DNA from: Saccoglossus kowalevskii
Taxonomy: Eukaryota > Hemichordata > Enteropneusta > Harrimaniidae
NCBI RefSeq assembly: GCF_000003605.2
Contig: NW_003119429.1
Coordinates: forward strand, 410,162-445,463
DNA: 35,302 nt
Direction: 5' to 3'
The notes under the pieces were generated by a model, which was not told where the DNA came from, searched no databases, and worked only from the letters and a program-made list of their open reading frames with translations. Shown one piece after another: positions 2,466 through 30,494 of the stretch. Position 1 is the stretch's first letter; the number at the start of each line of letters is the position of its first letter. A program made the position numbers and the translations under genes.

Positions 2466-2606
2466 GTCGTCACCTGCGCATGCGTCAGATGGCCATAGTG
2501 TGTCATTATTTACAAACAAGCGTCTACCCATGAGCCTTTTATCGTTTTTAGCATGTGTTGTTATCGTCGCTTGGGACTCAATTCTTGCGCGTGCGCAGGT
2601 GACGAC
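2466..2606. mobile_element. MITE-like element, copy 1 (141 bp)
   Basis: Terminal inverted repeats GTCGTCACCTGCGCATGCG and (reverse complement of the right end) GTCGTCACCTGCGCACGCG differ at one position. The body matches the copy near 6640-6772. No transposase and no clear target duplication. Confidence 0.7.
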
Positions 2607-4003: not shown

Positions 4004-4581
4004 TGATAATACGTGTGTGTATGTGTGTACGATGTTCCGTTACTGGATGTCCTTCAGTCTTTCAACATTATCCGCCGTGATAACGTAGGTGGCGACACAC
4101 TGGCAGTTAGCTTGGTCAACTTTCGATGTAATCTTGTTCGGAATAATGGTCTCTCAATGCCTTCACATACTACGCACGGGCTTAGACAGTTCAACCGGCA
4201 CTCCTAAACACACCTTTCCTGGAGCTTGGTTCAACACGAACGTGTAACACAACAGTTACATCGAAAAATCATGCAACAGTATGCACACTGGCGTCCAACT
4301 AAGCCCGGTTAACGGCCTCCTGCAGAGCTGAAGTTCAATCAGATCGCGTGCCGGATGCACATGATCGCGGGTACTATCCAATCAGAGTTCTTCTCCAAAA
4401 AAAAAAAAAAAAAAACCTCTACATCTCGATTTTTAAGGAGCATTACATGCATACCCTTTCAACTAGCTCATCTTAAAAATCGGAACTGATGGATTAACAA
4501 AGTTTACACATAATTGTAAGGTTGACATGTTTGTTTCCAATAAATACTTGATTTTATATTTAAACTTTACGTATTACGTAT
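4004..4581. other. No gene seen; includes a 20-nt A tract
   Basis: The A run at about 4397-4416 could be the tail of a retroposed sequence, but I see no tRNA-like A/B boxes or RNA gene upstream of it. Confidence 0.4.
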
Positions 4582-4693
4582 ATGAATGAATGAATGAATG
4601 AATGAATGAATGAATGAATGAATGAATGAATGAATGAATGAATGAATGAATGAATGAATGAATGAATGAATGAATGAATGAATGAATGAATGA
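4582..4693. repeat. (AATG)n microsatellite, about 28 copies
   Basis: An essentially perfect tetranucleotide run, long enough to be polymorphic. Confidence 0.97.
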
Positions 4694-6630
4694 CGAAGAA
4701 AATTTTTAGTCTGCACCTTCGTAGGCACCATCAAATCAAATCTTTCGCCATATTTTTTTTATTATAAAACATGGAAGGTACCTTCATTGATAGAGAGCAT
4801 GTGCCCTGGGATCCAGCTTCAAGGTATAGTTTTGATTACTCGTCCCGGTTACTAATATACATTTGTACAGTGACTTACCATCCAATAATATAGCGCCCTC
4901 AGACTGCGCGTCCTGAAGTATATGTCGGGTCTACTAAAATAATTCTTGATACATATACAAACGCAACATCAACCGATAGAATTGTAGGGAAGAAATTCAT
5001 TTAGAAATGTAATAAGAATAAAGATAATATAACTGTGTATTTCATCAAGGTATGAATTTTTTTTTATATAAATATTTATAAATCTTATATTTCATTATAG
5101 TTAAAAACTACTGAACCAATCATAACGTGTTTAAGATGACAGAAGAAACTCAGGGAAATCCGAGTTACCAAATGGATTCTATAACGAAGATTTTTTTTTT
5201 TTTTTAATGAAATGGGAAGATGGGACAAATGTGTTATAACTATTTTATAAATGTATATAAAACAAATTCTGATACCTCTATAACATGCACAAAATCGCAT
5301 GCTGATTGTATTTATTTAAAAAAAATATTTTTTTCTAAGTTGGATATTGGTCTCTAAAAAAAAAGAACTGCAGATTTAAAAAAAAAAATATTGGCCGTCT
5401 TCCTAGTCAAAGTCTTTGAAATGACAAATATTTAAGGGGTCATTCGTCAACTTAGAACATGATGATTAACAGTGGGCTCAATTTTCACAGACTGTTCTCA
5501 TATGATATAATTCACCATCAATGACGCCTGTGTACTATCACAGTCCCTATGGTACTACTAGTATGTATATGTATCCATTGCCCGAATCGCATGGTTTCGC
5601 GAACTATATGTGAACCAACGCCGTCACGAAGTCGTGCGTCATTCTAGCAAGAACCGTGTCTTATTTGGCTTCGGAAAACACATAGACTTAGAGGGCCTGT
5701 AAAAGATACACCCAATTGAAATTGGTGTTGCATATGTCAATGGACATGAAACAAAATGGCGGGATATTCGAATTGCCAACTTGAGATCGGACTTCTATAC
5801 ACACTCGCTGATATGCACAAATAAGTTGGTAGTGGTGAGGCGATGATCGATCGAAGATGCGGTTTCTCGTGCTTTAGCAAATTAAAAGAAAAAAAACACG
5901 ACACATACATTTTGTAATTTATGTTCACAAACATCGCCACCTAGTGTCGATACTGAAACCAAGTAGTATGCCCTCTAAAATAAGTTCGTTATGCAGCACA
6001 TTTTTGTAGTGGTACATGTCTTCTCCCTGTCACTGAACTCAGTTATATTAACACTATGGAAAAATACTCGAGTGGTTGTGTATGTGAAACGACAATCCGT
6101 CATTTTTCAGCTTGAATATATACAAGTACAAAATAAACTTTGAAAACAATATATATAATAAGATTTAAGGTTATGAGAAAGCAAAACAACAATATTCTAT
6201 TCTACATATGAGTGTACAAACACGTAGTTGCCGTAGCAACTCTGCAAATTGTTGTTATTATGCATTGTGTGTCATCAGCGGGTTCACGTAAACTGCGACC
6301 ACGTGACCGCTTCTCGTGATTCCTACCGTCGCGCAAAATAAATACTGTAACTACGCACCACGCCTTCTATGGCAACTCATGATCATTCGAACGTATACAC
6401 AATAAACGTCTAGCTATTTTGAAAAGTTACTTAGGACAACAATTGCCAAATATTATCTATTATATGTGGCATGCTCAGTAGTGCAAAATTTGATTTCGCG
6501 CCGTCAACGATTCTGTTTTAACCAAATTTGTACAAAGCCACGACATATTTCATGGAATTCGTGGTACTATAATTCGAACGTTTACCCACGGTTACGAGAA
6601 GAACAATTCTTCTAGTAACCGTGATTTACC
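4694..6630. other. No gene seen
   Basis: AT-rich DNA with scattered A/T homopolymers. A consensus-like X-box (GTTGCCGTAGCAAC) lies at 6227-6240. No exon supported. Confidence 0.45.
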
Positions 6631-6637
6631 TGAAAAC

Positions 6638-6772
6638 ATGTGCGCATACGTCAGATGGCCATAGCGTGTCATTGTTTACAAACACTGCAAGCGTTCAGCC
6701 ATGAGCCTTTGCATTTTAGCATGCGTTGTTATCGTCGCTTGGGACTCAATTCCCGCGCGTGCGCAGGTGACG
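6638..6772. mobile_element. MITE-like element, copy 2 (left end degraded)
   Basis: It shares with copy 1 the body TCAGATGGCCATAG, a TTTACAAACA block, ATGAGCCTTT, TTGTTATCGTCGCTTGGGAC and the right end GCGTGCGCAGGTGACG. The left inverted repeat is partly lost. Confidence 0.7.
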
Positions 6773-8700
6773 CGTCCTGTTCGATGTGGGACTCATAGCG
6801 ACGTATACAACGCGTGCAAAATACATTGTTTATTTACATGAAATTCGAACACGCGCTGCACGACGACCACCGCGCTTTAAAATAGCGCCATGAAATCACG
6901 TTTAATATAGTACACTTACATCGCTAATCACAACACATGTTATCGGGGCTTTGGGTGATCCTCTGCTGACATCCACTGATAACACTGCTAAAAAAACATC
7001 GTTAGAATATATAAACATGTTAAACATATATTTGTTACATCCATGGTCACCCTAATCCTACAGCTAATTGCACTAATGGGTTGAAAGGACGACTGGAACA
7101 TTGCAAAAAGTCGAAACAATGTTTTTTCTTTGATCAAATGGTTTTGCAACCGTTCCAAAACAGGAGTATCCCTATGTTATAGTAATGCTATTAGCATGGA
7201 GCTAAAACACATAGCTGCGAGCACGGCCCCTTTTTAATAGGGGAACTGTGTTCCTACACCACAGTCCCTCTATAGAGGGGATGTAACTACACACAACACG
7301 GAGCTCTATGTACACAATGTGTGAAATTGTATCGTATCTTCTTATCAGGGGATCTCCGTTTAAGCGCAAATCTTACGACAAATCAGTAACTGAATTAAAA
7401 TTACATTAAAAACAAAAGACAGATTAATAATGTAAACAGTGTTTACAATGGGTTTTGTGATGAAACCCCAGGCATCAACAGAATACGTCACATTGTGACC
7501 GACCTCTTGTAATAGTTGTACAACATGTCCTGTGTTTCGAAGACTGTAATATGTTTCTCGTCTATTGAGCTTCCAGATTGAAGTCGCCAAAACAAATCAC
7601 AATGTCCTCAATGAATTTGTTTCAATGTTTCTGCAACCCTTTAGAATGTTTTTCTTCTCAGAAGTGTAGACAAGTGTTTTACAACTGGCTGATGTAATGG
7701 AGGCCACTTGAAACAATAAATCACTTTGCGGCATCCTTATTCTTAGCTCACTAATCCCCTTGCCTTCAATTAGAACATTGTTCTGCTTTCCGTGATCTAT
7801 GCCACTTCGGGCCTTTGTATTGTTACAACGGTTCCCGACTGAAGTGATTAATCTGCACGAGTGACTAGCCACAGAATACAGTACTAGCTCATGCCACTAC
7901 TCGTTAGAAAAAAACAAAAAACAACAAAAACAACTCCGTCGAGTTTGCAGATATCACCTTGCGATAGCGTTTACAATCTGAGCATGGAGCTAAAAAAAGC
8001 TCCATGATCTGAGTAAGGAGTGATATATTTTTGAAGGATTAAAATTTGGCCCATGTTTACAAAGTAGTATTGACGCGCACCACGTGATGTGTGGTCTGGG
8101 TATAAACCCCGGGGATCGCAGAATAAAACAAAAAAAAGAATTATTCGTATACAAGCAGCTTACTAAACAATTGACTCGCATCCTGGGGCCATGTTTCATG
8201 ACCAGCGTCTGAGCACGGGACAATGGGAATTTAGGCAAGCGTGAGTAGATCAGTGGCGTTACAGCTAGTAACTTAGAAAAAGGGTAAACCGTGGACGATG
8301 AACGGGGCTCACTTGTGAATGAGATTACTCGGTCATCTATTATATGTGCAGCCACTTAACAGCCAAGTCACAATACGATTTGTCATAATTTACATCACAA
8401 TGAAGAAGGTGTGATGATTGATGTGTTTTGCTGCTTTATCAAGCAGTTGACAGCGTTGGAAGGGTACGTGGTGACTGGCATTCCAAATTAATTTGTATAT
8501 TGGGCCAACACACGGCAACCAATCAACTGTGTCCAACGCCAACTGACAGGATGATCAAATAACCTCAATAGGTTTCACTCGCTTGGCCGGCCAGTTGCTG
8601 TACGCTGTCTCTTCCCGTTTGTGCGGATAATACTACCACTGAAATGCCCAATGACACAATCACTGGCTACTCTACGTCCATCACATCGCTGCCCCACTGA
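6773..8700. other. No gene seen; short hairpin elements
   Basis: Holds CATGGAGCT at 7196-7204 and a hairpin CATGGAGCT/AGCTCCATG at 7983-8006. Near 7262-7280 is an inverted CCCTCTATAGAGGG motif whose flank CACAGTCCCTCTAT recurs near 14552. No coding exon; open stretches on the minus strand have random composition. Confidence 0.45.
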
Positions 8701-8710
8701 CCAATATTGG
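8701..8710. promoter_or_regulatory. Inverted CCAAT palindrome upstream of the SMOC-like gene
   Basis: CCAATATTGG, a palindrome containing CCAAT on both strands, lies about 80 bp upstream of the TATA box. It is positioned like an NF-Y/CCAAT element; its function is inferred. Confidence 0.4.
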
Positions 8711-8791
8711 AATCCAAATCCAGGATCACGTCGCTGTTAATTTAACTCGCTCAGACGATTTGTCTATGTGACGGTTTAGGGAAGAGGACTG

Positions 8792-8798
8792 TATAAAA
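8792..8798 (+). promoter_or_regulatory. TATA box of the SMOC-like gene
   Basis: TATAAAA lies 132 bp upstream of the start codon. A transcription start about 25-32 bp downstream (near 8820-8830) would give a 5' UTR of about 100 nt with no upstream ATG. That start would fall at or just before the AGCC repeat. Confidence 0.6.
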
Positions 8799-8818
8799 TC
8801 AGCCGACCAGACGAACAG

Positions 8819-8833
8819 CCAGCTAGCTAGCTA

Positions 8834-8869
<36 letters not shown>

Positions 8870-8873
8870 GAGC
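8819..8873 (+). repeat. AGCT/AGCC tetranucleotide repeat in the 5' UTR
   Basis: A short run of AGCT units is followed by about ten AGCC units, between the TATA box and the start codon. If the transcription start is where the TATA box predicts, the repeat is in the 5' leader and could vary in length between alleles. Confidence 0.75.
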
Positions 8874-8929
8874 CGAGTCGGAAGTTTGTTGTTCTGTGTG
8901 TGGTGTTGAACTGACTGCAGTGTTGTATC

Positions 8930-9004
8930 ATGAGATATTTATGGCTGTACATTTCGTGTGTAACAATAGCAGGGGTAATAGCCAATCCATTGTTTGGGAG
9001 CCGG
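8930..9004 (+). CDS. SMOC: Exon 1: signal peptide (residues 1-25)
   Basis: The ATG at 8930 is the first Met codon after an in-frame TGA at 8912-8914. The product MRYLWLYISCVTIAGVIA is a hydrophobic signal peptide with a likely cleavage after A18 (V-x-A). The exon ends at CGG followed by the donor GTAAGT, phase 0. Confidence 0.85.
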
Positions 9005-12000
9005 GTAAGTATGAGTTGATAATGTCTACCCTCCCTTTTTTTAGATCGCCGAGTCAGCGAAGAGGTCGATTATTATTGTGTTATTTAGTTTGTGTTTTTA
9101 TGTATACTTCCATGTGTCAACCGGCCAACAGTTAGCCGAGCTTATGTTTGTGGATGGCGGGTTGCATTATAAATGCAACAGTTCATACAAGTCGAATTCT
9201 TTGGTAGTCTTGTAAACTTTGCGACTATGTTAGACATCACGCTGTAGGTGTCCACTTTATACGGCTCAAGTGCTTTTGATGGAGCGCGACCAAACCTCTC
9301 GATATTATTACCAGCACATTTTTCACCATTCGGAACTGTAAACAGACTATGGAAAATACCTTGCTAGGCGTTATATTTTGTGAAAAAAATGGTTCAATAT
9401 TGCAAGGCCCAGTCGACAGCATGGACTCAGAGAATCCCAACCGAAGCGATGTTTATTTGCAGTGAAAAGATGGGAGTATAGCTTGCAAATAAGCGGCGCA
9501 ATTATATCAATAAACGGCTTTTCCTACTATAAACGAACCACTTTACAATCAGCGCAGCAGTTTGCATTCTTTCCCTTTTGTATGTTGCATACTGTGGTAT
9601 AGCATCTCAATTAAGGGCCCACCACCGCAAGCAAGATTCGGGACTAAAAGTTTACCTCACAATACATGCATTATTCAACACGGTCGGTGCAACAAGGACG
9701 ACTGTCCGACACAAAAACACACAACTACACTGGCTACACGCGGTCCTGCAAACGCAGCTGCTCGGCAAGTCCTTGTTTTGTTCGTAGGCATTCGATCCAC
9801 CATTCCCGTGGTTTGTTTTGTAAATATGCAGTGTTCCTCGATTTACACAGAGTGGAGGATCTACTTCAGTCGATTCTTAAGGAGAGCAACTGTCTGGCTA
9901 TACCGATGCATATAAATGTCACTCATTCGTCTTCTTTCAATGGCAACCGCCAACCACCCCACTATTAAGGAATTCTATACGAAATTCACACCTGTTTTGT
10001 CAGCCCAGCGCAGTCAAACGCTATTGACCTGGCCACTCAGTCACTCACAGGCTCACTGGGTTGATTGTCGAGTTGTGTGAGTTAAACGTGTTCTTCCTTT
10101 TAACACAGTTCACACTAACATCAAATAAATTGATACGGGTCGAGAATAGGAAGGTAATCGACCTGCATGTAAACTGTTGTCGACAAACTGAACATCGTAC
10201 AAACTGAACTGTGATTTAAGTTAAGCCAGTATGACTCGATCGTCTACTCTATTGCCAGTATATGTATTCGTAGCCACCGCCGACAAGATACAAGTCGCGA
10301 CACTGTTCAACTATGTCCCTATTTATGTTTGAAATACTGGGTATATTTATTATTATATTGTACGAAAAGCATAAACACAGAGTATTGCATTACAGCACAA
10401 ATACTAATTTATCGCAAGCAATTACGGTCGCTGTTATAGCGCCCGTGCGTACTACCCAGTACGAGCCCCTTAATATAAACCCTTCTCCGTCCGAGTTCTT
10501 CTGACGCTTTACGGCCTTTAATAACTCTATGTACCGTTGAGTAAAGCACCAATCACGGACAGTAGCCAATCCGGTTATTTTGCAAGTTGCAAGTCACAGT
10601 CTGTCCTTCGTTACGTTTAAAACGACTTTGTCGTGTCTATTTCCACGTATCCCGTAACACGTGCCCTTTGGTCTTATTCGTCGTATCCATAAACAACCCG
10701 AATCTGGCACATCCTGTTATTCCCATTCGCATTATTTAAAAGACAACAAAAAACAACCAGTTATTTAGTATGAACATTGTTAGATCGTATAAAAAAGAGT
10801 CTCGGGGCAAATGCGTTCGCCTTGGAACAAATAGTAAAATTTAATGTTCTGTTGAAATACCTATGCATAACGGCAGAGTGTAGCTGCGACCATGGTATAG
10901 ACGGTATAATCTACTAGTATATATATATCATTAACCAATATATTAGGTAAATATACTTATTTAGCATATGTGTCACCATTGGCTAATTATCCAATGAGAT
11001 GTCATGATACCGAATGTACCCGTCCGGCCTACGTTCAGCAGAGGCGATATATTAATTTTATGACCTTGCTAACTTCAGATGTGAAAATATACAGCTAACT
11101 TCAGAAAAATTCACCAAACTAATTTACCGCAGACAAATTTTGTACAGAAAATGGGGCGAAATTCATCAAGTAGGCACACAAAACGTGTAATTTTTACAGA
11201 ATCTGTGATAATGGATTGCAAAAAAAAATCATATTTACGCCCCCCCCCCAAAAAAAGCTATTCTGCGAGCTTAAATATATTGTACCTATAGGGGAAACCA
11301 CGTTAGGGCATCAGACCAGAGAGTATGCGTTGCCATGTAGAACACGCTTCTGACGATTTTGTTTATATTTAAAACGTAATTGTTATTGGTATCATTGATA
11401 TTTCATAGAAAATTTGCAGCACAGCTTACTATATATATAATATCATTTTTGGTATAATTGACAGTTTTTTTTAATTACCGCGAAGGAAAACGTTTGTTCA
11501 TATTAAATTTTCCAAATTTCAAGTTAGCCGTCAGTTTATGTCTTATTTTTTTTAGGTTACACGCGTTTATACACTTTTTGTATTTATTAAATAAAATAGT
11601 TATCGGAAGGTGATCTAAAAGTTCGTATAATATCGTATTTATTAGGACGGTATATATACATGTACCGGTATATCAATTGATATATGGGCATGTATCACCA
11701 GATTTATACAAGATTCACATGTGAAAACACGTGTTACGTAGTCTTCTTGACCAGCATTGAAGATTACGTTCAAGCGAAAACACTCGAACCCTCGCTGGTA
11801 AATAGCTTTTTTGACGAACAAACGTGTAAATTTCACAAAATCAGCGGTGCTAGCAAACACGAGTCGCGCAGTCCGTCAATTTCCATATATATCACTATGG
11901 TACAATAACTATCCTGCTAACGGATTGCCATACGCTTGAACTCGTACGTCACTCTTCAACAACGGTAGGAGAACAACAGACCCAGTAACTAGTAGATCTT

Positions 12001-15000
12001 ATATTGCAATAGTAATAGTAAAATCTAATACAGGACAACTATGTACCTAAAACAAATGAGACGTATATATATTGCACAGCTTTAGTAAAGTGTATAGATA
12101 TTCGAAGCATTTTCCTGTCACAATGTTTGAACTAACTTCGACTTAACATGCGTAGATAAATGGATAGATTTATTTATTAATTATCAATTAATTATCACCC
12201 ATCAGTTTCCCATTGGCAATGATGATGATCGCAGCGATGAGTGCAATGAAGACTGTTCTACGGTAGTGCAGAGGGCGGTATGTGGAAGCGATGGACGCAC
12301 TTACGGCTCAAGATGCGAACTGATGCGAGCCAGATGTCGGGGCAGTACAGCTGAAATACAACATAAAGGAGTCTGCCAAGGTAACACATGCATTTACAAT
12401 ACAAATCTATCACTAGAATAATGTGTCGGATCACTATCATTGCTCAGTCGCACATGTGTTTCTAATAACCATGGCAACGATGTCCAATACGGTTACACCA
12501 TGCCTTTATTTTCGCAATTTAAAATGAACGCTTCTATGCTTTAATCGAATTGATGCCACCAAACTTGTATTATCCTAACTGTTTTGTATAGAGTCGTCGA
12601 GGTGTGAGGCTGAAAGAAAATACAACCAAGAACAGGCAAACCAGGGTCGCCAGGCGGGTCTGTTCATACCAGAGTGCACCGAGGAGGGCAGTTTTAGGGA
12701 GGTCCAATGCTATGCATCCACCGGTTACTGTTGGTGTGTGACTGACCAAGGGAAGCCCATACCGGGGTCATCTGTGCGTTACCAACAACCGCATTGTAAC
12801 GCAGACGACAGTAAGTTAGTACGTTATTTAAAAACGAAGAGTAAACATCAGGATACTAACGTGTTAAAGCACATTACTAACTATACTAAGCAAACTTCAC
12901 GATTTGGGCGCTGTTCCGTTGAAAAATAAGTGCGCTTGTTTTGTTATATACCTATCCAGTAGGTTATGTCCCCCACAAATAAAGTCTGTGTTTATTGGCA
13001 ATGTACTGTACTGTGCTGTACTGTGACTAGTGTTGTTCTGCTTTATTAGGCCGACCAAACAGTAGACAGGGAAAGTCTGCACACAGGAATAAAGGTAAAA
13101 AAAAAGAAAGCCTGCAAAACGTCATTGTACTTTTTCTCTCTCCGCTTATACTGCAATAGTTCCATGCATTCTCACGTGTTTTTTTGTTTTTTTTTGCTAC
13201 CCGGTTTCATTCATCGCCTGCCGCTTTTACCGCTGCGCGTGTTTGTGTGAAGAATGTGTGCACCTGAGTGTGTTGGTTAGCAGCAGTGTTATGGTCACCA
13301 TGCATGCTACCATCACAACTCCCAATGAACGCTTTATAACCTTGAGCAGAGACGGTAGTTTGCTTGCAATATTTACTATCAATACTAATCAAAGCTAGTT
13401 GCCCGAATGCAGGTGCACAGGCTATATTTAGCTGGCTGGCTGGCTTGCCTTGGATACTCACGTAAAATGACGTCATTGTATTCAATTTAAACACTAATAA
13501 TGCTGCATCTTTTAGCATTAATATTAATAATACTTACATTATTATAGCAATAATAAATGGTAACTGTGTTTTTTTTAGTCTGCAGTGAATGCACACCTGG
13601 CGATATGAATCGAGATACAAGTCCCATATAATTACATGAGTGAACGTTGTTCGGTTATTGGTTACTTTCCCGAATCCATTTAACATGCACGCACAAAAAA
13701 AAACGTATTCATATTCCTTTCCACCTTAAGTTGTTACTTTCGTATTTGATTATTTTCTGCTATAATAACTCTCTGTGGTTTCCACTCTTTATTTACAGGT
13801 TGTAGCCAGTCGGAGAGACAAGTCTTCAACAACAACCTAATATCCATATTCAAAGACGAATACGCAAGACTGCCAACGAAACCACCAGCGGCAAATGACG
13901 AAGAGTACGAAGGAAACCCGAGCCTGCAGGCACTGTCGGCAATCGACGAACACGTGGATTCGGTAAACCAAAATGTTATAGACTGGAAATTTTCCGAACT
14001 TGATACGAACGCTGACAGCGAACTCGATAAAAAAGAGTTGAAAACCATCACTAAAATGATTAAAAAAATCGTCGAGCCTCGAACTTGCGCTCGAAATTTT
14101 GCCAAGTATTGCGACTTGGACCAAGATGGCAGCATCACGAACGGTGAATGGGCGGTGTGCCTAGGGGTGGATAACAGTAAGTCATTTATGTACCTCCGTC
14201 TAAGCTTGTACTTGACCGACCGCCATTTTATCATTTGTAGACGAGTTTTTGTTCATCCACCGTTGTTGCTCTCTCTTTCTTCTCTGTTCTTTTCATGTGG
14301 TTCTTTACACGGGATTCCACTAAGGCGGAGATAAGTATGTTACAGATAACATATAAATAAATTAGACACAACGGCGTTTGCGTTTCATTCAAATCCAAAT
14401 AATATGTTGTGATTGGCTGAAACACAAGTTTCTCGGTATACATGTTCACAACCAGATGTACTGGACGTAGACGTTGTACAACCTTAAAAAACCTTGAAAC
14501 ATACAATATCCGATGCCGACATGATTTGTTTTAAATTTGATCATACAAACCACAGTCCCTCTATCGAGGAAATGTGTACAAACCAATGACGTCAATCACA
14601 CACTTATTCTGATTGGTTCGATTCGGGCATTAATGTCAAACATCTATAAACCGATATACCTTGCTTGAGTGGATTCGCCTGTAAAATTAGCCAACGCGAG
14701 TGACATCACTCATAATTAACTATGCTATACTAGCATATGATACAGAAGATGAAACAGAGAGTAGTAGTTTGTCCTTTGATCCAACCCGACCCAACCCCTT
14801 TTTTACCCCCCTCTTACCGCGGATTTTGTCTAAAACACAAACTTTTCCTGTACGTATTAACGTGTTCATCTAATACTGATTTATGTAGATTTGTTTTTCT
14901 CCCAAAAGTATCATAGATTCAACAGATAACGCTACCTCCTCTCTATTACATATATATATATGTGTGTGTTAATTTTTCTCAGTATTTGTCACGTGACCCA

Positions 15001-18000
15001 ATCAATGCATGTATCAAGGTATGTCTCATCTTAACCTTCTTCATAACTAATACCTGTATATCAATCAATCAAATAAATAAATAAATCGATTAGTTAACTT
15101 GAACTTGAATTTTACATGGTTAATCAATGTTTGCAAGACGAGGATGTCCGTGCAAATCGACTACGCCCGATTTTAATTTAAAGAAAAAAAACACCTTCCC
15201 GTCTTCACTATATCCTTTATAAATTAGATATAACAAAGATAGGGAGGGAACCCCGTGGCTCTTCATCGTGAAAAAAAACTCTCTTACCATTTCAAGTTTT
15301 TTTTTAGATGAAGAGCCATGTTCTTTTGTGCCGGGCAAGTGCAAGAGTATTTCGTAGGTTTAGGCTTCATATTCGGTTTGGTTACCTTTGTAAATGTAGT
15401 CTCGTTTCGATTATTCCTTTCTCTTAACGCAGAGGGAGTGATCACAGAACCACAACCCGTGCCCAGTGAAATTCCCCCGGAAATAGGTGAGTATTTTTTA
15501 CTGCATTATTCATGCATTACTGATATATCGTAAAATAACGTATACCTGTTTTCTTGGTCGCCCATAACAATGATAACATGCGTTTTTTATCTGTTATTAA
15601 TCAGTAAAAAAACATAGCACGTTTTCGAACAGTTGTGTGCGTGATCGAACATTTCTAATTTGTGTATAGAATGACAAACGTCACACCGTGAACATATCAC
15701 AGTAACTATATCATATCTTTTTAACCTATGTAGAGGAACCAGAGACGAAACCAGAGCGTATCAGCGATGAGCCTACTCTTGTTGATCGGCAAACTCCACA
15801 AGTTCCGCTTATTCCGATCAAAGGTGAGTACAGGATGATTTTATAGGTGATACCTTTCACGCAGACCCACTCGCATTCACCTCGTCCCGTTAACATAAAC
15901 TGATGTAGACATATGCTCCTGTCGGTCGCCCGGTGTACATCGCCTGGTCACCAAGAACGTATCCTGTCCTTATCAGTCAAGTCTAATGTGAAATGTATTC
16001 AATTTGTAATTCAGTTAGTCTGTAGCCCACTTTTTATTCCCCGTTTCAGGTGCAGACTGAAAAGGGGAGTATAGTTTCTTATTTCGGGTTTCCATCTGTG
16101 ACGTTTCCATTACATCTCTACATCCATTAAATTTTTAGTGGGTCATTTTAATGATTTTCATCCAAAATTACCTCTCCCGTCAACAACTGAGCATGCTCAG
16201 AATAAATAATTCGCTTAGATTGTAATGCTAGGGTTTTCAGTGATGTCATGATCTTGATCTGAATCAGTGACAAAAATGGAAGACAGTCTGGTTTTTGTTT
16301 GGTTTTATGAAAAATTAACGCTGAAATCTTGAAAAAAGTGGTCAGAAATGTTGTTGTATATTATATCTTTAAACTGTAAAAATTGCATTCCATTATAAAG
16401 GGCCATCACTGAAATACCAGGTCACGAAGTTGAATATCAGTGAAAACACTTTACAGTTACTGTTTATAAATCTTGGCCAGGCACATTGACACATGTGGTC
16501 TAAATATAGCCTCAGTTGTCAGGGCTCGTGGATAAATGGGTCGTATCATTACGAATCTCAGTGGAAACTGTAGAGGGGTGTCAGGGCTACATTTTGATGG
16601 AAATTATAGTGGTGGTACTGAAACAAACCCAGGTCCTGGTAATATACAAAGCCCTGAATTAACAAAGAAGTCAAGTTGTTATTAAAGTTACATCAAGGTT
16701 TACTCGGATTTATGAATGCAGTTTCTTGAGCATGTATACATGTATGAGACACAGTTTGGTTGCACTTGTGTACTCTGAGATTTTGGACATGGGTCAATGG
16801 AAGTTTTCAGTTATCAATACAATACTAGATTAAGGGAAACCACTTTATGATGAGTTGTACCCACATAGAGTACATATTAATTCAACTGTTTGCAGATGTT
16901 CCATGTATTATTTTAACATGAGTATTTTATAATTAAATTACGGGGACTGTGTGACATTCATGTCTTGTTAAATTTGATAACCAGAAAATATTATTTCCGT
17001 ATTACTATTATTGGTATTTTTGTTATTACAGAGCATTCTTGTCAGATCGACAGACAAGTGGCTTTAGCAGAAGCTGAAACCGCACCGGACGCCGATATTT
17101 TTATACCTGAGTGCACGTCGGACGGTAAATTCCGGGCGGCACAATGTCACGCTGCGACGCAATATTGTTGGTGCGTACTGGTCGATACGGGGCGGCCAAT
17201 ACCAGGAACGTCGACCCAATATGAAATGCCGGAGTGTGGGACCAGCAACACGCCGAAAGTACCGGACAGGGATATGAAAGGTAGGTTGTCTCCTACTGCC
17301 ATGATGGAATGGCCGTTCTATGTTGCTGCAAAACCAAATAAACCACATGCTTCACCTCCCAGCACCGATGTCGCACAGATGGACCTCATACACTTGAAGA
17401 GAAAACTGCTACGTAAGCTATCCATCGTACTTAGTCGTTATGTAAAAAGGGCAATGTGGGCAACATAAAGAGGGGATTATGATTTATCATAACCCGAAAT
17501 TGTTCAATCTTCGTATTTCTTAGGCTTTGATTATAGTTCCATGCTTTGATCAAGGCCCACGTATTTACGCACTTAATACTGAATTAGCGGTATGTATATG
17601 TAATTCAAAACGGCCGTTCTTATACATGTACCCAGTTCATTATTTCGAGAGAAAAATATAATTTACTATATCAACATGCGCCAATGAAGATGAATAATTA
17701 TTTGCCGTTTTATTTAAATACAGTTATATAATAAAGACTATTGGTGAGCTTATCCAATCAATTAGTTCTAAGCCGCACCACAAGTACAACACTCGATCAA
17801 ACCTATTAGAATAACAGTTTTAGGAAATTTCAAGAGAACGTGCAGGACGGATACTGGTTGAGATATTATTTCAAATTGTGGGACGAATATTGGCAGAATT
17901 TCATTCCCCTTAGGTTTTGGTTGAATCACGTTTCCGGCTTACTAGCATTACAAGACTTCAACCATGACCAAAGTTATCTTCCTGAAGAATGTAGCTGGAA

Positions 18001-21000
18001 ATTTCTATACTGTGGTTCCGTACCGCCGACAAGCGACACATGCAACCAAATATATACGAATATTTTCAGCCATATCATTTTAAAAGGTCTTTTACTCCCC
18101 ACTAAATAATATGGTTAAGTGTGTGTCACATGACTCCAAGTCTCTTGCGACATTGAAAGATTACAAGTAATTGTCTGTGCTGAACCACGTATCTTAGAAT
18201 ACGTCACGGTATGGTTGAATAAGGCAGATGAAGTGGTGTGTTATTGAACAGTGCATTGTATCAACTAGCGATTAAGCATGTTGTATCATTGACATTATCC
18301 TAAAACTGTGCGTATTACCCGGGCTTAATTCTTAAAAAAAACTTGGATGGCGACTGTCGTGTACCTATTCCGAGTTGTCATGACAACAGCTCTAGTATCT
18401 TATGTTACCTACCTATCTACCTACCTACCAAAATTACCTATCCATATACCTACCTGCTCACCTACCTAACACCCAACCAAAACAAACCCAACTATAACAG
18501 TCCAAACCCATGCCACCAATCCCCAAAACATACCTACCTACCACACACCCAAAAAATACACATACACCCACCCACCCACCTACCTGTCTGCCTACAATAC
18601 ACACACCCACCAATCATCCTACGCACGCACGCAACTCCGATCCATCCAAACCATTCTCCCCTTACATCCAACCCACCCTCTTACCTCTCACATTCACGCG
18701 CACAAGCGCAACAACACACACGTATCGAGGACAGAGCATGGCGGGATAGAGGATTTGAACGGAGATGTAATACGAGTAAAAAAAAGTCTTGGCATGTGCT
18801 GCGAATGTCCTTTGACCCAGCACCACTAAGTAGTTTCAGGTTGGGTTTGTAGGTATAGCCTTGTTATCGTAACCCCAGCTATTTGTTGTCAGATGGGGGA
18901 TCTGTAGTCAGTCACATTCCGCGCATTTCCCTCGCAGCTTGAAATCAAATTCCCCCTTCCAGCTACCGTATAAATATTTACGATGTTGGAGAGAGAGAGA
19001 GAGAGAGAGAGAGGCACAGGTGCTTTCATAATCCATGTACAAGACCCTGGGCCGGAAACACCGTCACCTTAAAAATTTCTGTTGGCATGGTGATGACACT
19101 GATCTCCGCGCAGCTTTACGAGCCGTGTAAAAACATCTTGAAGTTTGTTGAGTTGGGAGTTGTCATAACGCGCCGGAGACGACGATATCTCTTGTCTTCC
19201 GGGCTTGTCTCGCTAAACCATTAACTATATGATTCAAATGATATCTCTGTACACGATTATTCTGAGTTGGGGATCTGTTTTGTGTGTGTGCCTTTTTTTA
19301 ATAAGAAACAGTGATTACTATAAAGTGCCGGGTGTCATGTTTTCTGCATTCTTGCGTTATCGACAAGGAGGAATAAAAAAAAACGTATCGCTCATGTGAT
19401 ATTTACGTCACTTAAAAACGTCTTACACGTGTGCGTACTTTAAAAAAATCAGGCGGTATCCTAGCGGGGCTTGAGCAGTTCCCGACTACTCGTAGTACAA
19501 CAAGACCTTTGTCTGACTACCACATGTCGGAGTATTCGCATAATTCAAATGTGACCACTATTGCCCTCACTGAACGCTCGTTTATAGCACGTCGTTTATG
19601 TCAGTTATAATTAAAACGTACACCATTGACGCTGTAATGTGTAAATATTGTTCATCACTTGGGGGATATATAGTTGTCTGCATATTGATATTAAATAACA
19701 TTCAAGTTGGTGTTTATTTATGCGGTATTTTGACGGCGTTTCTCACATGGAAAATGTTTACAGTCATTCGTGTGAGCCGCAGATATTTAGCCGATGCCCC
19801 ACGTCAACGAGTTCTTCAAGTTCTTTGTCAGTCTGAACCGTCCTTGTTCTTGGAAATGTCACGGTCGTGTGTCGCACGGGCACGTTTTTTTTTATCAAGT
19901 TTATTAAAAACTCGGTATTTTTTAGCAATCTGTTTACGCTTTAGGAGTTTCAAAGGTTGGGGCAGTGTGCCAAAGTTCTGGGTTCCCTTGAGATTTGAAA
20001 TGGATTCCTCGAAACATATTAGACGCGCTAGAATATCGTCGATACCCGAAGGCTGACAGATAGAACTGAACTATTCGTAAAACGCGAGTTGACGACATAA
20101 ATTGCTTTAATAGGTGTCTGGCTTGCCATCGCGTTGATTTATATATTGACATTGCGATAAGCGATGGGCACAGGTGTGAATACACAATTGCGAATAACTG
20201 AACATCGTTATAATAACGAGGCCGACTGGTGGAGGGGGGGGGTAATCTTTAGAGAGAGACTGACAATACATTGAAATAAATACCTATTTAACACATGGAT
20301 ATAAATAGCCCGGTCTAAACTTAAACAGTAATGCGATTATAGTCTCTTCTGACCGCCCAATGTGGAGTCTAGGGGTGATAGTTTTTCATTGATAAAGAGA
20401 TGTTTAAAAAATGATTCGTATTTATTTAGTCTTCTAGTCATTCAAGCTGTGATTACGTGGCGTCAACTACGGCATGTCATGCTGGAGACATATTCCCCCT
20501 TTCCCGAGTCACATATTGCAGTTAGACGGGGAAAGCGTGCTCTATGGCAGATATCAATTACATGCTTCTTTCGTTTGTGTTTCAACTTATTGTTATTTTT
20601 ACTCAGGATGTCCCACGGACAAGAAAGAACGTTTTCTCACAAGCCTTTTTGACAAACTGACGACGGACATGGTAGAGAATATGAACGCCCAGGAAGGGTA
20701 AGCGGACAATGAATAATTTAAAATTGCAAATAACACTTCCCGTGGTTACACGATTGGACAACTCTTGGCTCAGTGGAACTCACCATAAGCCGTGCCGAAA
20801 TAGTATGAAACTGGTTTGAACTTGTGTCTGAACTAGAGTGGGTATTGTTCAACACAAAATCCACGGTGTTTTCTCAGGATGCGATACTCACTGAAAATAT
20901 TTATCTATTCACGCGACCACACAAAATGTCTCTCAGTTCAGCACTCCATATTGCGATTTTTTCAATGTCTCTCTATTTACAGCGCCACGGAACCAGACCC

Positions 21001-22214
21001 GAACGACTCTCTTAAAGAAAGTACAGCCAAGTGGAAATTCCGGCAATTGGATCTAAACGGGAACGACTTGATTGACAGGAAAGAATCGGCCAAGTTTAAA
21101 AAGGAAATCAAGTCGCTCAAACCCAAGAAATGTGCGCGAAGTTTTTCACGTTACTGCGATGCCGACGAGGACAGAAAAATCACACTGACAGAGTGGTTGG
21201 ACTGTTACGGCCTAAATAAGGGTAAGATCCAATAAATAATTACTCCACATGGTTACTTACATGTTACCTAGCAACGGTTCATTCTCATGTATTTCATCTC
21301 TTATTTCAGATGAGGAAACAACTACAAGTAGCAAAAGACGGGGTCCCAACCCTTTTAGTAAGTATGCATAGTAACTCATGCAAAACCTTTTTTGTGTGAT
21401 GTCCAATACCTCCCTGCAATAATTTTCATTTTTAGTTTTTAAAAAAAATGCATAATTTTTATGAAGCAAAACACTTGTGGTTTACATTTTTCTTTATTTT
21501 TGTTTTTCCTCTTCTTTTATTACATCAAATCTTTGTACCATGGTTACAGTACAGTGGTTGAATCCAGGTCAGTACTGTAGATCAGTACTAGCATCACCAT
21601 GGTAACACCGCATGTATCCTTTGCATGTTCTTCTGAGGAATTGTTAATTCACTTGTATGTAATGTTTCACCATCCTTCCTCTAGCTGTGACGTGTCACTG
21701 GTGTCCCCCATGTGATTGACAATGGTGTGCCCTGATATACAATATAGTGTTGTGAAGCAATACACGTAGTAATAAATACTGTAAGGGTCTGTGCCATTGT
21801 GAGGGAGGGAGGGTGCAGAAAGTATTTTAACACATAATTACATAAGGCTTTAGTTGATGCTAAGATGCTGCGTAATATTGTTGTTTCTAACATTACTACC
21901 TCCCCTCAACAGTATTAATGGCTATATCCTTTACTGACACTGGAGGTCAACTTAATATATTCATTTTAAAAACCAAAATAGTTTTGCATGGATGACTTTT
22001 TGTATCATGCTACAAATCAAGTGCACTGTACTGAAACAAATTACTTCTTTGATAAAGAATAAATACAAAAGAACTCCATTCTTAAAATGGTTTTGATATT
22101 ATTCAAATAAAAACATTTTACTACAATCAATAGCTGACTTCAACTGCTTTTTTTTTTTTTTTTTTTTAATTTCAACATTATTTCTGTTTGATTTCAGTTG
22201 AGCGACTGACTTAA
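8930..22214 (+). CDS. SMOC: SMOC-like secreted calcium-binding matricellular protein with duplicated TY-EC module (13 coding exons, 572 aa)
   Basis: Spliced model: 8930-9004, 12206-12380, 12592-12810, 13050-13094, 13799-14176, 15308-15346, 15433-15486, 15734-15823, 17032-17280, 20607-20697, 20983-21221, 21310-21357, 22198-22214; 1719 nt including TAA. All introns are GT-AG and all phases join. Domains: signal peptide 1-18; Kazal-like C38-C82; TY C88-C152; EC1 172-297 with two EF-hands; linker 298-358; TY C362-C427; EC2 442-551 with two EF-hands; basic tail. Known SMOC proteins are extracellular matrix/basement-membrane proteins that modulate BMP and growth-factor signalling and bind heparan sulfate; the same role here is inferred from homology. 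EC2 and the domain order fit SMOC better than SPARC, testican or follistatin-like proteins. The oddity is EC1, which sits where the SMOC-specific region normally lies and makes the protein about 130 residues longer than human SMOCs. SMOC-family assignment is strong; strict orthology is not tested. Confidence 0.9.
9005..12205 (+). other. Intron 1 of the SMOC-like gene
   Basis: 3.2 kb between donor GTAAGT and acceptor CATCAG, phase 0. AT-rich with a C run near 11241; open stretches around 9562-9915 look random. First introns often hold enhancers, but none can be identified by eye. Confidence 0.75.
12206..12380 (+). CDS. SMOC: Exon 2: Kazal/follistatin-like domain (residues 26-83)
   Basis: The acceptor at 12204-12205 keeps phase 0 with exon 1; the alternative acceptor at 12233-12234 would give an immediate TGA. 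Acidic residues precede a six-cysteine Kazal pattern at C38, C42, C51, C62, C69 and C82, including the hallmark VCGSDGRTY. The donor is GTAACA, phase 1. Confidence 0.88.
12592..12810 (+). CDS. SMOC: Exon 3: thyroglobulin type-1 domain 1 (residues 84-156)
   Basis: Six cysteines from C88 to C152 with the diagnostic CWCV core and a preceding PEC / VQC pair, as in TY domains of the SMOC and testican families. Acceptor TATAG, donor GTAAGT, phase 1 to 1. Confidence 0.93.
13050..13094 (+). CDS. SMOC: Exon 4: 15-residue basic linker between TY1 and EC1
   Basis: A small symmetric phase 1-1 exon (45 nt) between a pyrimidine-rich acceptor TTATTAG and donor GTAAAA. It encodes an Arg/Lys/Ser/Asn-rich stretch with no fold. 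The fitting phases and open frame support it, but skipping would also keep the frame. Confidence 0.7.
13799..14176 (+). CDS. SMOC: Exon 5: first SPARC-type EC (EF-hand pair) domain, EC1 (residues 172-297)
   Basis: One 378-nt exon encodes a complete EC module. EF-hand loop 1 is DTNADSELDKKE (240-251) and loop 2 is DLDQDGSITNGE (277-288); both have acidic or oxygen ligands at positions 1, 3, 5, 9 or 7 and 12. Four cysteines (C173, C268, C276, C292) have the same CARxF and C-x7-C-x15-C spacing as EC2. Phase 1 to 1. Single-EC SMOCs have no counterpart here. Confidence 0.9.
15308..15346 (+). CDS. SMOC: Exon 6: short Cys-containing linker (residues 298-310)
   Basis: A 39-nt phase 1-1 exon after a strong T-rich acceptor. 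It encodes NEEPCSFVPGKCK, with two cysteines that could pair. The donor GTATTT is weak, but the frame closes at TAG shortly after it, so an exon read here must end there. Confidence 0.6.
15433..15486 (+). CDS. SMOC: Exon 7: Pro/Glu-rich linker (residues 311-328)
   Basis: A 54-nt phase 1-1 exon, acceptor CGCAG and donor GTGAGT. It encodes a Pro/Glu-rich, probably disordered segment. Confidence 0.7.
15734..15823 (+). CDS. SMOC: Exon 8: Pro/Glu-rich linker (residues 329-358)
   Basis: A 90-nt phase 1-1 exon, acceptor ATGTAG and donor GTGAGT. It is rich in Pro, Glu, Asp and Thr and continues the disordered linker between EC1 and the second TY domain. Confidence 0.72.
16536..16685 (+). CDS. Small ORF in intron 8 with an NPGP motif (possible retrotransposon remnant)
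   Basis: Forty-nine codons from ATG to TAA, including GGTETNPGP followed by G. The C-terminal NPGP resembles the 2A-like motifs found near the N-termini of some non-LTR retrotransposons in marine invertebrates, but the usual Asp two residues before the Glu is Gly here. No endonuclease or reverse transcriptase follows. It could be a decayed fragment or chance. Confidence 0.25.
   Translation: MGRIITNLSGNCRGVSGLHFDGNYSGGTETNPGPGNIQSPELTKKSSCY
17032..17280 (+). CDS. SMOC: Exon 9: thyroglobulin type-1 domain 2 (residues 359-441)
   Basis: Six cysteines from C362 to C427 with the CWCV core; the segment PGTSTQYEMPEC closely parallels PGSSVRYQQPHC of TY1. Donor GTAGGT at 17281, phase 1. The frame stays open past this donor to 17468 and holds a second, in-phase donor (GTAAGC at 17413), so a longer form of the exon is possible. 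Confidence 0.9.
18406..18720. repeat. Degenerate ACCT/CCAC-rich low-complexity tract
   Basis: Imperfect runs of CTAC/CTACC and CACCC with almost no G on this strand. The resulting Thr/Pro-rich open frames are artefacts of composition. Confidence 0.7.
18988..19012. repeat. (GA)n microsatellite
   Basis: About 12 GA units within intron 9. Confidence 0.9.
20607..20697 (+). CDS. SMOC: Exon 10: N-terminal part of EC2 (residues 442-471)
   Basis: Begins with Gly-Cys at a phase 1 junction, exactly like EC1. It encodes the amphipathic helical lead of a SMOC EC domain, including FLTSLFDKLTTDMV. The donor GTAAGC gives phase 2, a phase not used elsewhere in the gene. Confidence 0.87.
20983..21221 (+). 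CDS. SMOC: Exon 11: EC2 EF-hand pair (residues 472-551)
   Basis: EF-hand loops DLNGNDLIDRKE (495-506) and DADEDRKITLTE (531-542); in the second, position 6 is Arg instead of the usual Gly. The KPKKCARSFSRYC segment and the cysteine spacing are typical of SMOC EC domains. Acceptor TTTACAG, donor GTAAGA, phase 2 to 1. Confidence 0.92.
21263..21275 (+). promoter_or_regulatory. X-box-like (RFX) motif in intron 11
   Basis: GTTACCTAGCAAC fits the RFX X-box pattern GTNRCC-N(0-3)-RGYAAC with a one-base spacer. Function untested. Confidence 0.35.
21310..21357 (+). CDS. SMOC: Exon 12: Ser/Thr and basic C-terminal tail (residues 552-567)
   Basis: A 48-nt phase 1-1 exon encoding DEETTTSSKRRGPNPF. Acceptor ATTTCAG, donor GTAAGT. 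A basic C-terminal tail also occurs in other SMOCs; heparin binding is only a guess. Confidence 0.75.
22198..22214 (+). CDS. SMOC: Exon 13: last six codons with stop
   Basis: A strong acceptor (polyT tract then TTTCAG) is followed by codons giving I-E-R-L-T-stop in the phase required by exon 12. Short last exons are hard to prove without transcripts. Confidence 0.6.
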
Positions 22215-27106: not shown

Positions 27107-27440
27107 ACTTGTCCAATATCTCTGAATATGCAAATTAAGCTCATTACTATGCATGGATTTGCTGAATAACTAATCATGAATTGCACTTGTCCAATATCTC
27201 TGAATATGCAAATTAAGCTCATTACTATGCATGGGTTTGCTGAATAACTAATCATGCATTGCACTTGTCCAATATCTCTGAATATGCAAATTAAGCTCAT
27301 TACTATGCATGGATTTGCTGAATAACTAATCATGCATTGCACTTGTCCAATATCTCTGAATATGCAAATTAAGCTCATTACTATGCATGGGTTTGCTGAA
27401 TAACTAATCATGCATTGCCATTGTCCAATATCTCTGAATA
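27107..27440. repeat. 78-bp tandem array (4 full copies plus a partial fifth)
   Basis: Copies start at 27107, 27185, 27263 and 27341, nearly identical, with a truncated copy from 27419. Each full copy carries ATGCAAAT (27128, 27206, 27284, 27362) and GCTCATTACTATGCATGG. The 26-residue periodic minus-strand ORF is a by-product of the unit being divisible by three. Confidence 0.95.
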
Positions 27441-27762
27441 CTGCATTATTGATACATTTTGGAATAGAATTTGCACTGATTGATAGCAATATCTTCTTTA
27501 TATAAATTCCAAATACCCAACCATTTAAAAATCAAAAACTTCACCATAAAATATGCAATGCTACAGCAATAAATTAAAAAATCCGGACATTAGCATAAAG
27601 GCAAATTGTCAGTCTGGCAGAATTTTGTTCATCTCATGGAATAACATAAACTGAGATGAATCATTGAGTACACAACTTGAGGGTCACTGTGGTATATTAA
27701 GATATCAGAGTCAACATTACACAAAGTTCACTGATGCATTAGAGACATCACATATAGATAAT

Positions 27763-28646: not shown

Positions 28647-29120
28647 CAGTCAAGCAGTCTAAAACTTACCCTATGGGGCTTAGTTTGCAGTCGCAGCAAG
28701 CAGTCTGAAAAAGACCTAAGGAGCCTATTTTTCAGTCACAGTGAACAGTCTGAAACTGGCCTAAAGGGCCTAGTTTTCAGTTACAGTGAGCAGTCTGAAA
28801 TTGACCTAAGGAGCCTAGTTTGCAGTCACAGCGAGCAGTCGAAAACTGACCTAAGTGGCCTAGTTTGCAATCGCAATGAGCAGTTTGACACTGACCTAAG
28901 AGGCCTAGTTTGCAGTCACAGCGAGAAGTCTAAAACTGACCTAAGGGGCCTAGTTTGCAATCGTAATGAGCAGTTTGACACTGACCTAAGTGGCCTAGTT
29001 TGCAGTCACAGTGAGCAGTTTGAAATTGACCTAAGGGGCCTAGTTTGCAGTCGCAACGAGCAGTCTGAAACTGACCTAAGTGGCTCAGTTTTCAGTCACA
29101 GCGAGCAATTTGAAACTGAC
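28647..29120. repeat. 45-bp tandem array (about 10.5 copies)
   Basis: Variants of a unit beginning AGTCACAGCGAGCAGTCTGA and continuing AACTGACCTAAGGGGCCTAG. No indels shift the period, so the + frame is open from 28629 to 29174 (181 codons) as a 15-residue repeat of the type CSHSEQSETDLRGLV. Central copies form a 90-bp dimer. No signal peptide or flanking splice sites support translation. Confidence 0.92.
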
Positions 29121-29174: not shown

Positions 29175-30494
29175 TGAGTCAATTGTTTTAAATGCACTTA
29201 AATACTCCCTAATGCAAAGTGTTTTGAATGCATGTGAATGAGCAAAAATTACAAAAATAAATAGGCAATGCATTTGACAAATTTAATTTTAATTGCTTTT
29301 AGGACACTATACAAACATACATAAAATATTTGAATATTGTCTGTAGGCAAAGTTGTATTAAAATGAGCAGTTTAGAAGATAATTGACATTAGTGACGTTA
29401 CATTGATTGCTAATGAACCATGGACGACAAAAACTTGCACATTGCATACAAATCAGCAAGGTGGGTATTGATCACAGTTTTCACTTTTTTACACATGGGT
29501 ATAAGTGAAATTTATCATATCCAGTTCACAAGTTCAAGCTATTGAAAACCATAACGTCTAAGAAGATGTCGCATTTCAATGATCAAGCAAGCAATAAATG
29601 TTGTACAATGTATGTGTGCCTCTATTAGACATGTGCTTCTAATAGAGTAAATATGGTATTTAGATGCACAAGACTCAGCAGCCATGCATTGCAGACATGT
29701 ACACTTGGTTACAGCCCGAAGTTATACAAGTGATCCCTATTAAACAGGAACAACAATCTAACTACTACAGTACATTATTAAATGATAAACTAATTACTAT
29801 CACAGATTAGATTTCCACAAGCACGCCCCCTAGTGGCCACTGAACAACATTGTTATACCGGTAGTTGCAGTGTACAGAGTCGGGTGCAGGCTTTGCATAA
29901 CAGTTTGTGCCAAGCCACAGATTGAACATTCTTAATTATAAATAATGATGTATGTTTGCCATTTTTTAACTTCACTGTAGAATAGTCTTTAAAAAAAAAA
30001 TACTCATGTTACTAGTAATTGTGTGCATTAGTTATGATTTTAGGATTTTGTCAGAATTTAAAAATATTCAGAAACATTAAGTTTTCTCGCAAATAGAAGC
30101 AAAAGTGTGCAGTGATTTTGGAAAACACTTTGGGATTTGTTTTTTTGTTTTGTTTCTAGGCCTTATGAGTTTCAAAATATTGATGGTTTTTCAGATTCAT
30201 TTTTTTTCATCTCACCAAATAGAAGATGTTTTGTGCATGTCAAATAATGAAATTTACCTTCTAACAGCATGATGACTCAAAAATAAACAACTATACTTGC
30301 AAGAAGTATGATATCAAATGACAAAGATTTGGAGAATATCAGAAAAGTCATTCAAGAGGCTATCAAATGTCTGCCGCTGGTTTACATAATTGGCATACAA
30401 CTCTACAAGTTTTCTTGTTTGACACTTCAATTTGACTTTAGAAATCTTTATTCTGACAAAAAGAGCACAATGTACTTTTTTTCTGAGAATAAAA
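29175..30494. other. No supported gene
   Basis: AT-rich. GCCCCCTAGTGGCC near 29825 resembles a CTCF-type core word and also a common dispersed-repeat end. A short + ORF at 30308-30532 runs into the minisatellite. Confidence 0.4.

What the first reader, a model, noticed from the sequence alone, without database searches (positions are those of the whole stretch)
12592..21221. SMOC-type protein with a duplicated TY-EC module (two SPARC-type calcium-binding domains)
The spliced protein reads Kazal-TY-EC-linker-TY-EC. Both EC units begin with Gly-Cys at a phase 1 junction, have four cysteines with identical C-x7-C-x15-C spacing after a CAR-x-F motif, and carry two complete EF-hand loops each. Described SMOC proteins have one EC domain at the C-terminus and a SMOC-specific region between the TY domains. 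Here an EC domain occupies that place. It could be a lineage-specific duplication, or the ancestral layout from which the SMOC-specific region decayed.
Basis: partly seen in the sequence, partly recalled or inferred. Interest (0 to 1): 0.8.

Follow-up and report, generated by a model that had tools for sequence, protein, structure and literature searches.

The report
Acorn-worm SMOC with two EC domains
This is a secreted matrix gene (SMOC) of an acorn worm whose protein carries two calcium-binding EC domains instead of the single one in our own SMOC proteins; fruit-fly Pentagone has the same layout, so the two-EC form is probably the old one and vertebrates probably lost a domain.

Summary
A 12-exon gene on the + strand (8930-22214) encodes 559 aa: signal peptide, Kazal/FS, TY1, EC1, linker, TY2, EC2. 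Both ECs pass the Pfam SPARC_Ca_bdg cut-off and EC1 is modelled like the SPARC EC domain. It is the only SMOC-like gene the EC search found in its genome. The genome's mitochondrial code and gene order match those published for the acorn worm Saccoglossus kowalevskii, so this is a deuterostome.

The layout is not new: Drosophila Pentagone is published as FS followed by two alternating TY and EC domains. What the window adds is the same layout in a deuterostome. This favours an ancient TY-EC-TY-EC form and loss of EC1 in vertebrates; but the EC tree is unresolved, and a review that credits echinoderm SMOC with the vertebrate domain set is a counter-hint. Decay of EC1 into the SMOC-specific region has no sequence support; loss of the single phase 1-1 EC1 exon is simpler.

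Likely function (inferred): a secreted heparan-sulphate-binding modulator of BMP range, with basic clusters in both ECs. No transcript data were available. New member of a known kind; moderate interest.

The parts
8930..9004 (+). exon 1, signal peptide MRYLWLYISCVTIAGVIANPLFGSR, phase 0 donor gtaagt
   Evidence: only hit of a scan of window 1-12190 for ATG + hydrophobic stretch + phase-0 GT[AG]AG donor (no shuffle control); joins in frame to exon 2. Predicted, not proven
12206..12380 (+). exon 2, FS/Kazal domain
   Evidence: Pfam Kazal_2 38.7 bits; splice sites
12592..12810 (+). exon 3, thyroglobulin type-1 domain 1 (TY1)
   Evidence: Pfam Thyroglobulin_1, 2 stretches in the protein; best TY hit of the own genome, 74.6 bits
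13050..13094 (+). exon 4, short linker SRPNSRQGKSAHRNK (45 bp, phase 1-1)
   Evidence: resembles the stretch after TY1 of recalled human SMOC1 by eye only, not above shuffles (289 of 1000 as good)
13799..14176 (+). exon 5, EC1: complete SPARC-type EC domain in one symmetrical phase 1-1 exon (378 bp)
15433..15486 (+). exon 6, Pro/Glu-rich linker
15734..15823 (+). exon 7, Pro/Glu-rich linker
17032..17280 (+). exon 8, TY2 (alternative in-phase donor after 17412)
   Evidence: second-best TY hit of the own genome, 71.7 bits; donors
20607..20697 (+). exon 9, first part of EC2 (phase 1 to 2)
20983..21221 (+). exon 10, EF-hand part of EC2 (phase 2 to 1)
   Evidence: Pfam EC2 (exons 9+10) 45.1 bits
21310..21357 (+). 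exon 11, C-terminal tail
22198..22214 (+). exon 12, last residues of the tail (protein ends RRGPNPFIERLT) and stop
   Evidence: recalled human SMOC1 ends GTNPFIGRLV

Best explanation
The window holds the SMOC (Pentagone-type) gene of an acorn worm, Saccoglossus kowalevskii or a close relative. It encodes a secreted protein with layout signal peptide-FS-TY-EC-TY-EC. The TY-EC module was duplicated before the split of protostomes and deuterostomes. The acorn worm and Drosophila Pent keep both ECs; vertebrate SMOC1/2 keep only the C-terminal one. EC1 is one symmetrical phase 1-1 exon, so its loss in one step leaves the frame intact. Mechanism (inferred from the family): EC1 and EC2 bind Ca2+ through paired EF-hands and heparan sulphate through basic helices E/F. 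The protein would sit on glypican-type proteoglycans, compete with BMP for these sites and so widen BMP range, while the TY region antagonises or binds BMP. Two basic ECs may make it a bivalent heparan-sulphate binder. Shown: gene model, domains, modelled fold, taxon signature. Inferred: age of the duplication, vertebrate loss, all function.
For: Gene model and domains. EC1 fold. One SMOC: 4 EC matches in 572 Mb, 2 of them in this gene, the other two SPARC-like (L002) and testican-like (L001). Taxon: in the mtDNA of the same assembly ATA falls on Ile in COX1 (5 Ile, 2 Val, 1 Leu, 1 Met of 9 sites against PDB 7o37; ATG 17 Met of 19), AAA on Lys (1 of 1), AGG is absent from the 12 genes read, cox1 is inverted, nd2 precedes nd1, nd5 and cob are adjacent, as published for S. 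kowalevskii (PMC3121625; PMC2697986). Layout in Pent. Orthology, human letters recalled: TY1-TY1 37/66 and TY2-TY2 40/68 against 31/64 to 33/65 for the four TY1-TY2 pairs; holding the two acorn-worm TYs together is nearly rejected, p-AU 0.053; EC2-human 51/109 against EC1-EC2 38/109, higher in 9844 of 10000 column resamples. EC1 does not look fast-evolving: EC1 and EC2 each match acorn-worm SPARC at 22 of 59 columns. SMOC-type heparin site: basic at 6 of 8 positions in EC1, 5 of 8 in EC2, 2 of 8 in own SPARC, 1 of 8 in own testican and in human SPARC (the 8 positions from PMC3578922).
Against: No RNA: EC1 could be skipped in transcripts; skipping it leaves an in-frame protein of 433 aa. The EC tree is unresolved: EC1+EC2, EC2+human and EC1+human are all acceptable (p-AU 0.419, 0.45, 0.466), and the three SMOC ECs are not even recovered as one group, a very long testican branch falling among them. 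In the 59 columns shared by all six ECs the pairs are level (EC2-human 27, EC1-EC2 26, EC1-human 25), so the closeness of EC2 to human rests on the N-terminal part. No Pent letters were at hand, so EC1 of fly and acorn worm were not shown to be orthologous. A review says echinoderm SMOC has FS, two TY, the unique domain and EC (PMC10381214, passage read), which, if exact, demands a second loss in echinoderms or a gain in acorn worms. Human comparisons rest on a recalled sequence (8 of 8 published residues agree, but its length, 453, differs from the 434 listed for human in PMC2235864). AGA as Ser was read by the code chosen, not tested against a reference.
Confidence: 0.78

Rival explanations
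1. Lineage-specific duplication: EC1 arose inside acorn worms (or Ambulacraria), and fly Pent gained its inner EC independently.
For: The EC tree does not exclude EC1+EC2 (p-AU 0.419) and the 59-column core shows no clear difference between the pairs; the echinoderm review gives echinoderm SMOC the vertebrate domain set; C. elegans SMOC-1 has one TY and one EC.
Against: It needs two independent insertions of the same kind of domain at the same place between the TYs; over 109 columns EC2 is nearer to human EC than to EC1 (51 against 38; 9844 of 10000 resamples) although EC1 is no faster than EC2 against own SPARC (22 of 59 each).
Confidence: 0.17
2. The vertebrate SMOC-specific region is a decayed EC1.
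For: It lies in the same place between TY1 and TY2.
Against: Human stretch against EC1: matched or beaten by 797 of 1000 shuffles; against exon 4: 289; exons 6-7: 587; controls EC2 875 and TY1 186 (human letters recalled). The recalled stretch has no cysteine and no EF loop. The EC1 exon can be lost cleanly (phase 1-1).
Confidence: 0.06
3. Gene-model artefact: EC1 belongs to another gene or is an exon never spliced into SMOC.
For: No transcript data.
Against: Same strand, phase 1-1, gtaagt donor and pyrimidine-rich acceptor, intact cysteines and EF loops, same layout in Pent.
Confidence: 0.03

Closest known systems
Drosophila Pentagone (Pent/Magu, CG2264)
   Same: FS followed by two alternating TY and EC domains; an additional EC between the TYs (PMC10464977, PMC5360445, passages read)
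   Different: protostome; sequence not at hand, so identity and exon structure were not compared
Vertebrate SMOC1/SMOC2
   Same: FS, TY1, TY2, C-terminal EC with basic helices E/F; similar last residues (NPFI.RL, recalled human letters); a very short exon (window exon 4, 45 bp; buffalo exon 5, 48 bp, PMC2235864), correspondence untested
   Different: one EC only; a SMOC-specific stretch where EC1 lies here
C. elegans SMOC-1
   Same: TY followed by EC; binds glypican through EC (PMC10464977)
   Different: one TY, one EC, no FS
SPARC-like and testican-like genes of the same genome (L002, L001)
   Same: EC domain of the same Pfam family
   Different: one EC match each; in the testican-like locus the TY follows the EC; few of the SMOC heparin-site basic residues (2 and 1 of 8)

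Membership tests
[quoted passage not shown]
   Kazal_2 38.7 bits; candidate signal-peptide exon
[quoted passage not shown]
   2 stretches of PF00086
[quoted passage not shown]
   EC2 45.1 bits, loops intact
[quoted passage not shown]
   EC1 6 of 8, EC2 5 of 8 basic; own SPARC 2, own testican 1, human SPARC 1 (reference human SMOC1 letters recalled); heparin binding itself not tested
[quoted passage not shown]
   no similarity above shuffles to exons 4, 5 or 6-7. It marks vertebrate SMOC1/2, not the whole family: published Pent has an EC there
Pentagone-type double TY-EC SMOC | order FS-TY-EC-TY-EC | tested here: met
   Pent layout from PMC10464977 and PMC5360445
Pentagone-type double TY-EC SMOC | EC1 orthologous to the inner EC of Pent | not tested
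   no Pent sequence at hand
SPARC EC domain (Pfam PF10591) | profile match over cut-off and SPARC EC fold | tested here: met
[quoted passage not shown]
   needs protein

The most novel reading that the evidence does not exclude
FS-TY-EC-TY-EC is the ancestral bilaterian SMOC. The vertebrate SMOCs are derived by clean loss of the single phase 1-1 EC1 exon, and the vertebrate 'SMOC-specific domain' is rebuilt linker, not a relic of EC1. C. elegans SMOC (TY-EC) is a further reduction. The acorn worm then keeps a bivalent heparan-sulphate-binding SMOC that vertebrates gave up. (Probability lowered from 0.55 on rechecking, because the 59-column EC core shows no clear difference between the pairs.)
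Probability: 0.5. Interest if true: 0.5.

Novelty: new member of a known kind. Interest (0 to 1): 0.36.

Why it matters
Papers on vertebrate SMOC treat one EC plus a SMOC-specific region as the form to start from, and the extra EC of fly Pent as an addition. The same layout in a deuterostome suggests the reverse: the fly form is probably original and the vertebrate form reduced. That bears on which functions (BMP spreading through heparan sulphate binding, BMP inhibition by the TY region) are old, and makes EC1's role testable by comparing native and EC1-less versions.

Tried and rejected
1) Relatives in viral contigs: no match to any of 6 peptide patterns; expected for an animal gene. 2) EC phylogeny with 6 rows (EC1, EC2, recalled human SMOC1 EC, own SPARC, own testican, human SPARC letters from PDB output): unresolved; p-AU 0.45 (EC2+human), 0.419 (EC1+EC2), 0.466 (EC1+human), 0.472 (all three SMOC ECs); testican branch 3.34. 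3) TY phylogeny with 5 rows: TY2 pair supported 85/91; TY1 pair not recovered but not rejected (p-AU 0.35); the two acorn-worm TYs together p-AU 0.053. 4) Decay of EC1 into the human SMOC-specific stretch: no better than shuffles. 5) A SMOC structure in the PDB: no chain so named among the 35 sequences listed for the protein at E <= 0.001. 6) Papers on SMOC in hemichordates: whole words 'SMOC' and 'hemichordate' 0 papers (this misses 'hemichordates' and 'SMOC1'); 'SMOC1' with 'Saccoglossus' 1, the echinoderm matrix review; further searches, of which only listings were seen beyond the papers named. That I saw no printed hemichordate case rests on these and on an open-licence library only. Bertrand et al. 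2013 on the SPARC family (PMC3619480), Novinec et al. 2006 and PMC1223551 on SMOC-2 are not held and may discuss it. Passages of PMC3464141, PMC6079037 and PMC5122892 gave nothing on the layout. 7) Long ORFs of the tandem-repeat regions are repeat translations. 8) One search stopped with an error after its alignment; its pairwise part was rerun.

Full report
What is there. The + strand of the window carries a 12-exon gene from 8930 to 22214 that encodes 559 amino acids. Exons 3 to 8 and 11 are phase 1-1; EC2 is split by a phase-2 intron; all 11 introns are GT-AG. The order is signal peptide, Kazal/FS, TY1, EC1, Pro/Glu-rich linker, TY2, EC2, short tail. Pfam finds two TY stretches, two SPARC_Ca_bdg stretches and one Kazal_2 in the protein, given without exon 1 and the first 10 residues of exon 2. 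The signal-peptide exon at 8930-9004 is new here; it was the only hit of a simple scan without a shuffle control and is a prediction.

Which animal. In six frames the assembly (572 Mb, 4830 contigs) has four EC matches, two of them in this gene. The others look like testican (L001, EC followed by TY) and SPARC (L002). The search is exon by exon and can miss divergent genes. The mitochondrial contig (17,037 bases, 16,500 read) gives the taxon. Against COX1 of PDB 7o37 (mouse, by recall) ATA falls on Ile at 5 of 9 sites (2 Val, 1 Leu, 1 Met), whereas ATG falls on Met at 17 of 19; the one AAA falls on Lys; TGA on Trp at 7 of 9. AGA occurs 7 times and AGG never in the 12 reading frames taken, whose starts I set roughly; AGA was not tested against a reference. 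The order is atp6-cox3-nd3-nd4l-nd4-nd5-cob-(-nd6), then the presumed rRNA region, nd2, nd1, (-cox1), cox2 (tRNAs; genes other than COX1 named by me from their translations). PMC3121625 (passages read) gives for Saccoglossus kowalevskii AUA Ile, AAA Lys, AGG absent, AGA Ser, an inverted cox1 and a transposed nd1 or nd2; for Balanoglossus AAA is absent, for echinoderms it is Asn, for chordates AUA is Met. PMC2697986 (passages read) adds that nd5 and cob are adjacent in hemichordates. The window is therefore from S. kowalevskii or a near relative, a deuterostome.

What is known. Two papers state the Drosophila layout plainly. [quoted passage not shown] SMOC homologues have one or two ECs. PMC5360445 (passages): Pent has an additional EC between the two TYs. 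The layout in the window is thus that of Pent.

Old or new duplication. TY1 pairs with TY1 (37 of 66) and TY2 with TY2 (40 of 68) above the four cross pairs (31 of 64 to 33 of 65); holding the two acorn-worm TYs together costs 6.6 log units, p-AU 0.053. For the ECs, EC2 and human EC agree at 51 of 109 shared columns, EC1 and EC2 at 38, EC1 and human at 36; EC2-human exceeds EC1-EC2 in 9844 of 10000 column resamples. EC1 is not simply faster: EC1 and EC2 each match own SPARC at 22 of 59 core columns. But in those 59 core columns the three SMOC pairs are level (27, 26, 25), so the closeness of EC2 to human comes mostly from the N-terminal part, and the maximum-likelihood EC tree is unresolved and cannot choose. 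Layout in Pent, parsimony and the TYs point to a duplication before the protostome-deuterostome split; the EC evidence is moderate. Against it stands a review sentence that echinoderm SMOC has FS, two TY, a unique domain and EC (PMC10381214, passage); I could not check the sequences.

How EC1 may have been lost in vertebrates. EC1 is one 378-base exon, phase 1 at both ends. Removing it leaves the frame and a 433-residue protein; human SMOC1 is listed with 434 residues in PMC2235864, but other species there have 452 to 468, so the near-equality may be chance. Human SMOC-specific residues do not align to EC1, to exon 4 or to exons 6-7 better than to shuffles (797, 289 and 587 of 1000; controls EC2 875, TY1 186), so decay of EC1 is unsupported, and homology of the linkers is unproven too. 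[quoted passage not shown] window exon 4 has 45 bases directly after the TY1 exon. This may be the same exon; I could not test it.

How it works. Inferred from the family. SMOC-1 EC binds heparin through basic residues of helices E and F (PMC3578922, passages); Xenopus SMOC EC competes for heparan sulphate and widens BMP signalling while the EC-less protein inhibits it (PMC5360445); C. elegans SMOC-1 binds glypican through EC (PMC10464977). At the eight mutated human positions EC1 is basic at 6, EC2 at 5, own SPARC at 2, own testican and human SPARC at 1 each. EC1 also keeps the longer E-F connection of human SMOC EC (EC2 lacks one residue of it), where SPARC lacks three residues and testican five. 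Both ECs thus look like SMOC-type heparan-sulphate binders, and the pair may bind two chains or one chain more tightly. That is untested.

Verdict. A real, well-formed gene with a known layout; the value lies in its taxon, which favours an ancestral double-EC SMOC and loss in vertebrates. On rechecking, the probability of the novel reading was lowered from 0.55 to 0.5 because of the level core counts.

Noticed in passing
window 17281-17412: The TY2 exon has a second in-phase donor (after 17412, gtaagc) that would add 44 residues with an open frame before EC2; possible alternative splice form.
   Followed up: partly
window 4-645, 4582-4693, 27107-27445, 28653-29120, 30489-32224: Tandem arrays (units 21, 4, 78, 45 and 27 bp; the last about 65 copies) flank the gene; long ORFs there are repeat translations.
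   Followed up: partly
L006-L007 (G000 C4830, 17,037 bp): Mitochondrial contig with hemichordate code and Saccoglossus-type gene order (inverted cox1).
   Followed up: yes
L001 (G000 C1337): Testican-like gene: EC exon followed by a TY exon near the contig end.
   Followed up: partly
L002 (G000 C2185), minus strand: SPARC-like EC exon whose acceptor lies directly behind a long CT repeat that would serve as its pyrimidine tract.
   Followed up: no
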